This document shows, one piece after another, positions 45,486-48,400 of a DNA stretch of 58,992 nt. The stretch is from Conoideocrella luteorostrata. Taxonomy: Eukaryota > Ascomycota > Sordariomycetes > Hypocreales > Clavicipitaceae. The number at the start of each line of letters is the position of its first letter. Within the stretch, counting starts at the first letter, position 1. The stretch lies in the NCBI GenBank assembly GCA_032433595.1, contig JASWJB010000282.1, positions 1 through 58,992 on the forward strand, read 5' to 3'. The position numbers and the translations under genes are program-made. The notes below the pieces were generated by a model. It had not been told where the DNA came from and made no database searches. It worked only from the letters and a program-made list of their open reading frames with translations.

Positions 45486-48400
45486 CTAGTAAAGCATTAG
45501 CAATAGCACATGCATCGCTTCCAAGGAGTTCGTACCAGAGAGAATGGCCATCAAGCGTTCTGCAACCGCCGCATTCCTTGCGCGTGACAACGGAGTTCTG
45601 CCATCTTCATCTTCCAAGTCTGGTTGAGCATCGTATTGAAGCAAAAGCTCAACAATATTCTTATCTCCTATCTCCGCAGCTCGTGATAAAGGCGTCTGGA
45701 TATTCCATTAATAATAATATTAAGCCTTCCGTAGCTACTTTCACTTACCCGCTACATCAGTCAAGCGAAGTATACCAATGTCAGTCACCAAGTCATTCTT
45801 ACTATTCGTCCCAGATCGGTTTCACTTACCCGCTACACCAGCCAGGCATGCCAATGTTAGTTATTAAAGTCCACTCTTACTATTTGTCCTAGATCGGTTT
45901 CACTTACCCGCTACACCAGCCAGGCATGCTAATATTAGTTATACTCTTACTATTCGTCCTAGATCGGTTTCACTTACAAACTACACCAGCCAGGCATGCT
46001 AATGTTAGCTATTAAGTCTACTCTTATTATTCGTACTAGATCGGTTTCACTTACCCGCTACACCAGCCAGGCACACTAATGTCAGTCACTAAGTCTACTC
46101 TCACTATTCTTTCTAGATCGGTTTCACTTACTGTCTACACCAGCCAGGCATACTAATATCAGCTATCAAGTCTACTCTCACTATTCGTCCTAGATCGGTT
46201 TCACTTACTGTCTACACCAGCCAGGCACACTAATGTCAGCTATCAAGCCTACTCTCACTGTTCGTCCTAGATCGGTTTCACTTACTATCTATACCAGCCA
46301 GGCATGCTAATGTCAGCTATCAAGTCTACTCTTACTATTCGTCCTAGATCAGTTTTACTTACTGTCTACACCAGCCAAACATACTAATATTAGTCATTAA
46401 GTCCACTCTTATTATTTATCCTAGATCCGCTCCACTTACCCACTACACCAGCCAGGCATACTAAGATTAGTTATTAAGTCCACTACCATAATTTGTCCTA
46501 GATCAGTTTCACTTACTAGCTGCACCGGCCAACCAATGTTAGCCATCAAACCTACTCTCATTACTCGTCCTATCCGGTTTCACTTACAGGCTACACCGAC
46601 CAAACATACCAATGTCAACCATTAGCTCTACTCTTATCCACTCGGCAATCTGACTTTACTTACAATGTAATATTGATAATTCACCATGGCTTTGTTCTCG
46701 AGTAGTAGCTTGATAGTTGTTATGTGCCGTCTTTCTATCGCATGTGCGAGCGCTGTTAAACTTTCAGCCTTCGTCTCAATGTTGGCGCCATTCTTGAGCA
46801 GGTGCTCGACCACAGTATCATGTCCAAAATGCGACGCTAGCATAAGAGTTGTGGTACAACAAAATTGACTCCTCCCCACACTATGCCAATAAATCGGAGA
46901 CCATGCCGAATAGGCCTTGAAATTTGGGTCGCAAATTTTCAAAACGGAAGGCATTATGCCACTATCATCAATAATATTGCCGTCGCGGAAGTGAGAGCCC
47001 CATGTTCGGGCTGAGTAACCCAAGAGAGCGCGGCCGTCGACAAAGTGACTCTCGTCGGAGTAGCCGCCGGTAGTTTTACTCTCGAGGGAGTAGCTATCTT
47101 CAGAGTCACTCTCGTCGAAGTAGCTACCTTCAGAGTCACTCTCGTCCAAGTAGCTACCGTCAGAGTTGTACAAATTTAGATAGAGCACACAGATCTCCGC
47201 AACAGCGGCGTGCGCTTCTCGGATACTGATGGAATTATGCCATGATGGCCCGGGCGAAATATCTGTCGGTGCCGATGTTGCGAGGAGAAATTCGCGTGCA
47301 GTTTGATGTAGGAGATAAATTCTATCATGATAGACTGAAACGAATAATCCACACCAAGATCTAAGACTTTGCTTGAAGTCATGTTCGCTTTCGAGGTCAA
47401 GGTCGTGAATAGACTGCAATGTAGGGTCCACATTCACGGCAACGTTCATCTCCGCGACGGTTAGCGGCCGACGCGCGGCCAAAATAATGGTCAAGATCTT
47501 TCGGGCCATTGAGTTCTGCTTGGATTTGCTAAGAATTTGCTCATATGCCTGATTGACATTCGCCGGAAGAGCTTTTACGGTGGACTCGTCAACCCCATTT
47601 ATTGTCTTTTTAAAGTCTTCTCTCTCCAAGTAGTCAAAGACAAGGTATACCCAGAGATAGGTGCGGTGGGTAACCTCCTGTAGTCTTTTCTGCAAATGGG
47701 CCTTGATTTGTTGTGAGAGACGCTTCTTACTTGAGAGCTGATTGACACGGTGTATAATGACGAGGTTTACCTCCTGGCTAATTGTTTCTGACTCTTGTTC
47801 CCCTGGTATATGGATACTTGGAAAAGCTTCCAACAGGCCATGGAATCGGGACACGATCTGACCATATGGGCGGCTCGTTAGAAGATACTTCACCTGGCCT
47901 TGGTCGGGCCGGTCCCGACTACATAGGCTCTCCACGTTTCGCATCAGGTCTTCGAACTCCGATCCGGCGCATTCGTCCAGAGCATCAAGGACTATAATCA
48001 TAGGACCAGCCCGGGGGTCTTCTACAGCGTTTCGTAGAACTTCCCAGAGCGATTTAGTAGAGTTGATCAAACCTGACCCGTCTTTGCGGATTTGCGGGAT
48101 CGCATGTTCGATTAGAGACGGCTTCTGGTAGAAGAGCTGGTGAAGCAGGGCGCAAAGAGCTTTCCTGACGGTGTTCTGGTCTTGTTCTTTAAAGAAGAAG
48201 TAGCAGATTGTGGTCGATGGTGCCAACAGTGGTAGGTGGTGGTCGATCAGGTACTTGGCCAACACCGACTTTCCACAGCCAGGATCGGCTGTCACCAGCA
48301 AGGGACCGGACTCCTGTTTCGACCAATTCTGAAAGTTCTCGTGCTCGAGGAGCCACAAACACGTGCCATCAACCCTTTCTTCCACTCGGTCCTTGTACCA

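What the first reader, a model, noticed from the sequence alone, without database searches (positions are those of the whole stretch)
45696..46663. Tandem array of about 12 complete intron-like units with variable 3-nt spacers inside one NLR intron
Seen: thirteen GTAAGT donors on the gene strand, mostly exactly 77 bp apart. Each is followed by a branch-like GCTGACA/GCTAACA and a GGTGTAG acceptor, with three bases before the next donor. In gene order the triplets are CCT, CTA, TGG, ACA, ATA, ACA, ACA, CGG, TTT, CGG, CGG, CGG. None is a stop, and they vary much more than the splice signals on either side. Flanking exons join in phase 0 whether the array is removed whole or unit by unit. Known: short fungal introns use these signals; introner-like elements and stwintrons are described in fungi. 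Inference: this is either an intron that duplicated together with its splice sites, or a tandem introner-like array, possibly removed stepwise. Conservation of donor and acceptor against a free triplet hints that the signals are, or were, used.
Basis: partly seen in the sequence, partly recalled or inferred. Interest (0 to 1): 0.86.

Follow-up and report, generated by a model that had tools for sequence, protein, structure and literature searches.

The report
One-codon exons in a fungal NLR
A fungal immune-type receptor gene carries thirteen intron-like stretches in a row with only one codon between each, and three other genes of the same fungus seem to spell out secreted peptides in the same way, an architecture not found described in the papers that could be searched.

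Summary
The array is real. On the minus strand, 46663-45696 holds 12 complete intron-like units (67-78 nt) and a shorter thirteenth (53 nt), separated by 12 three-base spacers, inside the ankyrin-coding 3' end of an open PNP-NACHT-ankyrin gene. The unit was found nowhere else in this genome, so it is no introner family here. A signal-only search of the 46.4-Mb genome found the same arrangement in three further genes (37 hits, four loci; backwards control 0; four-base-spacer control 0). Each begins with a signal-peptide-like exon ending in or near Lys-Arg, followed by 70, 27 and 20 single-codon exons between mostly unalike introns; two spell cysteine-rich peptides. In these three genes forcing any other spacer length destroys the chain. 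Best reading: this fungus splices single-codon exons, and the NLR array is a young, tandemly duplicated example that adds up to 12 residues to an ankyrin loop without shifting frame. No transcript was available; removal as one 968-nt intron is not excluded. The organism appears to be Conoideocrella luteorostrata.

The parts
46664..49600 (-). Exon 1 of the NLR gene: phosphorylase (PNP_UDP) - NACHT (NPHP3_N) - DUF7069 - winged helix - ankyrin; open throughout, ends ...MVNYQYYI (first ATG 49600 or 49597; start not tested)
46591..46663 (-). Intron 1, 73 nt, GTAAGT..GGTGTAG; longest branch on the unit tree; then codon-exon CCT 46590-46588
46520..46587 (-). Intron 2, 68 nt; then codon-exon CTA 46519-46517
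46443..46516 (-). Intron 3, 74 nt; then codon-exon TGG 46442-46440
46366..46439 (-). Intron 4, 74 nt; then codon-exon ACA 46365-46363
46289..46362 (-). Intron 5, 74 nt; then codon-exon ATA 46288-46286
46212..46285 (-). Intron 6, 74 nt; then codon-exon ACA 46211-46209
46135..46208 (-). Intron 7, 74 nt; then codon-exon ACA 46134-46132
46058..46131 (-). Intron 8, 74 nt; then codon-exon CGG 46057-46055
45981..46054 (-). Intron 9, 74 nt; then codon-exon TTT 45980-45978
45911..45977 (-). Intron 10, 67 nt; then codon-exon CGG 45910-45908
45833..45907 (-). Intron 11, 75 nt; then codon-exon CGG 45832-45830
45752..45829 (-). Intron 12, 78 nt; then codon-exon CGG 45751-45749
45696..45748 (-). Intron 13, 53 nt: shares GTAAGTGAAA with the units, then differs; ends ATATCCAG
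45486..45695 (-). Exon 2: 69 codons, beginning as ankyrin repeat (TPLSRAAEIGDKNIVELLLQ...), and a stop; phase 0 with exon 1. A further small intron near its end was not tested
   Evidence: ankyrin matches on both sides of the junction

Best explanation
The array is a row of thirteen spliceosomal introns separated by twelve single-codon exons, near the 3' end of an NLR gene. It grew by tandem duplication of a unit made of an intron plus one codon (supported by sequence). The spliceosome recognises each short intron by itself, probably one after the other, and joins exon 1, some or all of the twelve codons, and exon 2 (inferred). All inner exons are 3 nt and all introns phase 0, so a skipped codon-exon leaves the frame intact; the receptor gains 0 to 12 residues in the loop between two ankyrin repeats. 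It is the young, still repetitive member of a class in this genome: three secreted-peptide-like genes carry 70, 27 and 20 single-codon exons between mostly unalike introns (shown as sequence anatomy; that these are spliced is inferred from the coherence of the product).
For: Array anatomy. The same arrangement in three other genes, found without using the unit's sequence: 37 hits in four loci, backwards controls 0, strand check identical, four-base-spacer version 0 hits. Chain score by forced spacer length 0-12: C5 796 at length 3 against at most 44; C15 217 against at most 41; C307 314 against at most 37; window 210 against 93 at length 7 and at most 37 otherwise. Longest runs of 3-nt exons 57, 15 and 20 in the three loci against at most 5 in 60 Markov shuffles of them and at most 2 on their other strands; 12 in the window array, at most 2 in the other stretches of the window scanned. 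In the three genes 0 of 116 triplets is a stop (P with local triplet frequencies 0.0012, 0.16, 0.28); 8 of 20 are Cys in C307 (P 3e-7) and 6 of 26 in C15 (P 0.0015). C307's array ends at an exon starting TAA; C15's can end at an exon reading GCA TAA. In the window array no donor is lost in 13 copies, and the 12 units keep a branch-like motif and YAG. Exon 2 still begins as a good ankyrin repeat in phase. 11 of 11 own-genome paralogs aligned run through this site without an intron and have 2-3 more residues there than this gene would have with the array removed whole; the same holds for 7 of 8 homologs from other fungi. Keeping some codons would close that gap.
Against: No transcript or protein data. 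Twelve stop-free triplets are uninformative on their own. Donor invariance is only P 0.02 once RIP-type differences, which cannot touch GTAAGT, are set aside. Keeping all 12 codons would make the loop 9-10 residues longer than in those paralogs. One homolog, P0031, has a shorter loop still, so a short loop is tolerable. Recognition of an acceptor and a donor 3 nt apart at the same time is unlikely (inference). The NLR is not a secreted peptide and lacks the 3' element of the other three genes. The window array scores 93 with a 7-nt spacer. The published assembly is from short reads, so the copy number may be wrong. Database searches with the C15 and C5 readings found no spliced relative.
Confidence: 0.62

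Rival explanations
1. The 968 nt are removed as one intron from the first GTAAGT to the last CCAG; the units inside are an intron that became a minisatellite, and their splice signals are relics.
For: Removal whole is in phase 0 and leaves the ankyrin loop only 2-3 residues shorter than in 11 paralogs. Mutation bias could explain part of the donor invariance.
Against: Twelve complete short introns with strong signals would have to be passed over for a 968-nt pairing, in a fungus where three other genes read through only if such short introns are removed one by one. No donor is lost in 13 copies.
Confidence: 0.2
2. The array is a recent expansion that is not spliced productively: transcripts keep it and end at the stop 46636-46634, giving a receptor that lacks the last 69 codons.
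For: Reading on from exon 1 meets a stop after 9 codons.
Against: Exon 2 still begins as a good ankyrin repeat in phase, and splice signals persist in the units.
Confidence: 0.1
3. A tandem array of introner-like elements, inserted as mobile introns.
For: Similar introns with complete signals; introners are reported in pezizomycotina fungi (passages of PMC9860276).
Against: The unit was found only here: 1 place for the whole array, 10 pattern matches, all inside it, 10 BLAST matches, all inside it.
Confidence: 0.04
4. Assembly artefact: copies multiplied or collapsed from short reads.
For: Illumina SPAdes assembly (PMC12352038, ANNOUNCEMENT section), if it is this one; the units are repetitive.
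Against: The 12 units differ from one another, and three arrays of mostly unalike introns cannot come from repeat mis-assembly.
Confidence: 0.04

Closest known systems
Micro-exon genes (MEGs) of Schistosoma mansoni
   Same: Genes for secreted proteins built of very short exons, 3-81 bp (start of the abstract of PMC10526429 in the listing).
   Different: MEG exons vary in length and sit between long introns (up to 5 kbp, same source); here dozens of consecutive exons are one codon and the introns 50-90 nt. The NLR is not a secreted protein.
Single very small exons (Arabidopsis APC11, 1 nt; 3-nt exons)
   Same: Shows that spliceosomes can join exons of 1-3 nt (abstract and introduction of PMC4674806).
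   Different: Isolated exons, not runs.
Microexon of Xlr2 in Trichoderma virens
   Same: Microexon in a filamentous fungus; [quoted passage not shown] pombe (PMC11121469, passages).
   Different: A single regulated microexon.
3-bp and single-base exons in fungal and other mitochondrial genes
   Same: Very short exons between introns; called scarce and possibly under-annotated (passage of PMC12308204).
   Different: Mitochondrial introns of other kinds, not spliceosomal ones (recalled); isolated exons.
Stwintrons of Hypoxylaceae and other fungi
   Same: Adjoining fungal introns removed in succession (starts of abstracts).
   Different: A stwintron has one intron inside a splice signal of another; here introns stand side by side with a codon between. 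PMC9024468 and PMC12403724 hold no 'microexon'.
Introners / introner-like elements
   Same: Multiplying intron sequences with complete splice signals.
   Different: Introners spread to many genes; this unit was found at one site.
Recursive splicing (ratchet) sites
   Same: Acceptor and donor nearly abutting, removal in steps (recalled, no call).
   Different: Ratchet sites leave no exon; here 3 nt stand between.

Membership tests
Introner-like element | Near-identical intron copies at many genes of one genome | tested here: not met
   Only the array itself matches
Introner-like element | Complete splice signals in the copied unit | tested here: met
Stwintron | Splice signal of an outer intron interrupted by an inner intron | tested here: not met
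   Each of the 12 units has uninterrupted donor, branch-like motif and acceptor; units are separated by 3 nt
Micro-exon gene | Run of very short, frame-preserving exons (predicted) | tested here: met
   12 of 12 inner exons are 3 nt in the window; C5 70 of 71, the other 15 nt, and C307 20 of 20; C15 27 of 30, the others 6, 6 and 12 nt
Micro-exon gene | Product is a secreted protein | tested here: inconclusive
   Not so for the NLR; C5, C15, C307 begin with signal-peptide-like exons judged by eye, no predictor run
Micro-exon gene | Small exons shown in mRNA | not testable with these tools
   No transcripts held; protein searches with the C15 and C5 readings found no spliced product
Intronic minisatellite | Head-to-tail similar units | tested here: met
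Intronic minisatellite | No constraint tied to splice signals | tested here: inconclusive
   Donor invariant, triplet hypervariable; donor P 0.02 without RIP-type differences
PNP-NACHT-ankyrin NLR | Phosphorylase, NACHT and ankyrin domains in one protein | tested here: met

The most novel reading that the evidence does not exclude
In this fungal lineage proteins can be written one codon per exon: tandem duplication of an intron-plus-codon unit lengthens a protein one residue at a time without frame risk, the codon is then free to change, and the introns drift apart until, as in the secreted-peptide genes, little but the splice signals remains. In the NLR the twelve optional codons could be kept or skipped, giving up to 4096 in-frame mRNAs (1040 distinct inserts) that vary an ankyrin loop of a self/non-self-type receptor.
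Probability: 0.22. Interest if true: 0.97.

Novelty: new variant of a known kind. Interest (0 to 1): 0.88.

Why it matters
A run of 57 consecutive 3-nt exons goes far beyond the isolated microexons in the papers seen here and would test how spliceosomes define exons and introns. Gene finders miss such genes: the deposited protein at C15 keeps exon 1 and the six codons of two longer inner exons, and then goes another way. The NLR array, still repetitive, would catch such an architecture early and make the origin of one-codon exons, and of new protein segments, testable in one culturable fungus.

Tried and rejected
Introner family: rejected, no copies found elsewhere (the tool warns that very common words are skipped). 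Conserved RNA structure of the unit: not seen (fold z -0.24, one unit of 12 folded). Shared flanking repeat: window 45000-45250 resembles sequence downstream of the C5 gene, but it is a dispersed repeat (40 matches, itself included, all that were scored of 241 candidates), so a coincidence. Transcript support through protein databases: the C15 reading gave two relatives alike over the exon-1 part, the C5 reading none. Pfam: no match for the C15 and C307 readings and the C224 ORF. Assigning introns to their array by sequence beyond the splice signals worked only in part: 49 of 66, 12 of 21, 8 of 17. Arrays at C224, C23 and C178, which share the 3' element: none found. Structure prediction was not tried, since a spliced protein is not a contiguous reading of the window. 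Papers: judged by the titles and abstract starts listed, none is on runs of single-codon exons (10 of 10 listed; 23: 20 of 111; 29: 18 of 18; 30: 1 of 1; 39: 1 of 1; 40: 15 of 22; 48: 0 found; 80: 10 of 11); the library holds only openly licensed PMC papers.

Full report
What is there. On the minus strand of the window, 46663-45696 holds thirteen GTAAGT donors. Twelve start complete units: donor, a CTRAY or TTRAY motif and a YAG acceptor, 67-78 nt in all, followed by three bases and the next donor. The thirteenth starts a 53-nt intron that shares only GTAAGTGAAA with the others and ends ATATCCAG. Exon 1 upstream belongs to an open frame of 989 codons, counted from stop to the first stop in the array, and codes a phosphorylase-NACHT-winged helix-ankyrin protein; exon 2 continues the ankyrin repeats in phase.

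How the units vary. Across 12 units the three spacer columns have the highest entropy of the 83 columns, 1.46-1.55 bits against at most 1.21 elsewhere. On a FastTree tree the spacer columns carry 12 changes and the six donor columns none (permutation P 0.0001 and 0.0013; 94 changes in 77 columns in all). Differences in the unit bodies are mainly transitions (93 against 13 transversions), those in the spacers mainly transversions (7 against 13), Fisher P 2e-6. A caution: 48 of 107 differences outside the spacers lie in contexts that RIP (recalled) would change, and GTAAGT offers RIP no target; with those set aside the donor's invariance is P 0.02. The spacers follow the order of units loosely (ACA, ATA, ACA, ACA, then CGG, TTT, CGG, CGG, CGG; 3 of 11 neighbouring pairs identical). 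This fits duplication of intron plus codon with unusually fast change of the codon. Whether that is diversifying selection, relaxed constraint or a peculiarity of how units arise I cannot say.

Not an introner. The whole array, a 30-base pattern with up to 3 mismatches and one unit by BLAST at E up to 10 each match only this array in the 46.4-Mb genome. Of 145 own-genome matches to the C-terminal part I took 11 stop-free ones that cover the site: 11 of 11 run through it without an intron and have two (7) or three (4) residues more there than this gene with the array removed whole. Two further matches over the site, L031 and L034, contain stops and were not examined. Of 8 homologs from other fungi aligned, 7 also have two or three residues more and one (P0031) fewer. 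So the introns were probably gained in this gene.

The wider find. I searched the genome for signals only: three GTRAGT donors in a row, each pair separated by 45-75 bases, YAG and three bases. This gave 37 hits in four loci: C5 (11), C15 (5), C307 (10) and the window (11); the backwards control gave 0. The reverse-complement pattern gave the same 37 places. A version for shorter introns gave 19 hits at C5 (9), C15 (3) and C307 (7), none in the window, with 1 in the backwards control. A four-base spacer gave 0. Arrays with weaker donors would be missed. A splice-site chain program run on these loci reads C5 as 72 introns with 71 inner exons, 70 of 3 nt and one of 15; C307 as 21 introns with 20 inner exons, all of 3 nt; C15 as 30 inner exons, 27 of 3 nt, two of 6, one of 12. 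The program favours 3-nt exons by design, so I forced each length from 0 to 12: only 3 gives long chains in the three genes. Shuffles reach runs of at most 5 (60 shuffles), the opposite strands at most 2.

Why I believe those exons. Each of the three genes begins with a signal-peptide-like first exon (by eye) that ends in Lys-Arg or two codons after it (Kex2-like, recalled). Of the 116 triplets counted none is a stop; with local triplet frequencies the chance is 0.0012, 0.16 and 0.28 for C5, C15 and C307. Cys makes up 8 of 20 codons in C307 and 6 of 26 in C15, and 0 of 70 in C5. C307's array ends at an exon beginning TAA; C15's can end at GCA TAA by an acceptor that I chose by eye over the program's choice. 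C5's 3' end is unresolved. The three genes share a 50-62-base element near the 3' end that also occurs at C224, C23 and C178, where no array was found; at C224 it follows an intronless cysteine-rich ORF of secreted type, so a gene of similar kind exists without introns. Introns within an array align better than shuffled ones (mean score 0.2 against -3.6 in C5, -2.7 against -4.3 in C15, -2.3 against -5.6 in C307), far below the window's 33.0 against -3.5. Beyond the splice signals C5 and C307 introns share position-specific sequence (5.46 bits against 0.91 shuffled, 6.05 against 3.05), C15 hardly (3.17 against 2.58; 66, 17 and 21 introns used). That is compatible with old duplication in C5 and C307, or with shared splicing preferences, and not shown in C15.

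Organism. P0122, a deposited Conoideocrella luteorostrata protein, lies on a contig of 275,379 bases, the length of C15. The genome paper (PMC12352038, ANNOUNCEMENT section read) reports Illumina reads, SPAdes, and annotation from proteins without mention of RNA. Its 864 scaffolds and 47.39 Mb differ from the 620 contigs and 46.42 Mb held, so the identity is likely, not proven. P0122 keeps exon 1 and the two longer inner exons next to each other, then departs from the micro-exon reading; P0123, from another source, is alike in exon 1 and ends five residues after it.

Mechanism. Shown: the anatomy, the likeness of the units, an open frame for each of the 4096 combinations of codons, and other genes of the same build. 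Inferred: each short intron is recognised by itself and removed in turn, so that codons are joined one by one; skipping costs one residue and never the frame. In the NLR the result is 0-12 residues in an ankyrin loop; how many are kept is unknown.

Known or new. Exons of 1-3 nt are known singly (PMC4674806, abstract and introduction), also in mitochondrial genes (PMC12308204, one passage). Schistosome MEGs have exons of 3-81 bp between long introns (PMC10526429, start of abstract). [quoted passage not shown] pombe (PMC11121469). My searches for runs of single-codon exons found no paper, within an openly licensed library. I call it a new variant of the micro-exon gene kind.

Noticed in passing
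G000:C5 about 278874-273500, minus strand (L062): Signal-peptide-like exon ending Lys-Arg, then 70 of 71 inner exons of one codon between introns of 54-90 nt; branch-to-acceptor distance most often 21; 3' end not resolved.
   Followed up: yes
G000:C15 about 53920-51850, minus strand (L063): Cysteine-rich secreted-type gene with 27 single-codon exons; the deposited protein QQS21_001433 there looks misannotated. Weak granulin-like match of the mature part, E 0.056.
   Followed up: yes
G000:C307 about 42440-40800, minus strand (L064): Signal-peptide-like exon, 20 single-codon exons with 8 Cys, then TAA.
   Followed up: yes
C15:51689-51789, C307:40753-40814, C224:36129-36191, C23:67446-67496, C5:272948-272997, C178:33249-33290: A 40-60-base element (..TTGTATGGAGTTCTC..GAGTTTAAGCTCGGCCG..) near the 3' end of the three array genes and at three further loci, one of them behind an intronless cysteine-rich ORF; possibly a 3' UTR signal or a small repeat.
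   Followed up: partly
window 45000-45250: Copy of a dispersed repeat: 40 matches in the genome, itself included.
   Followed up: partly
window 23588-24653 and 32845-33858: Other tandem repeats: 99-bp units that look like ankyrin coding sequence, and a 123-bp repeat.
   Followed up: no
window 55001-58000: Strongly AT-rich end of the contig (GC 0.16-0.28), perhaps RIP-affected.
   Followed up: no
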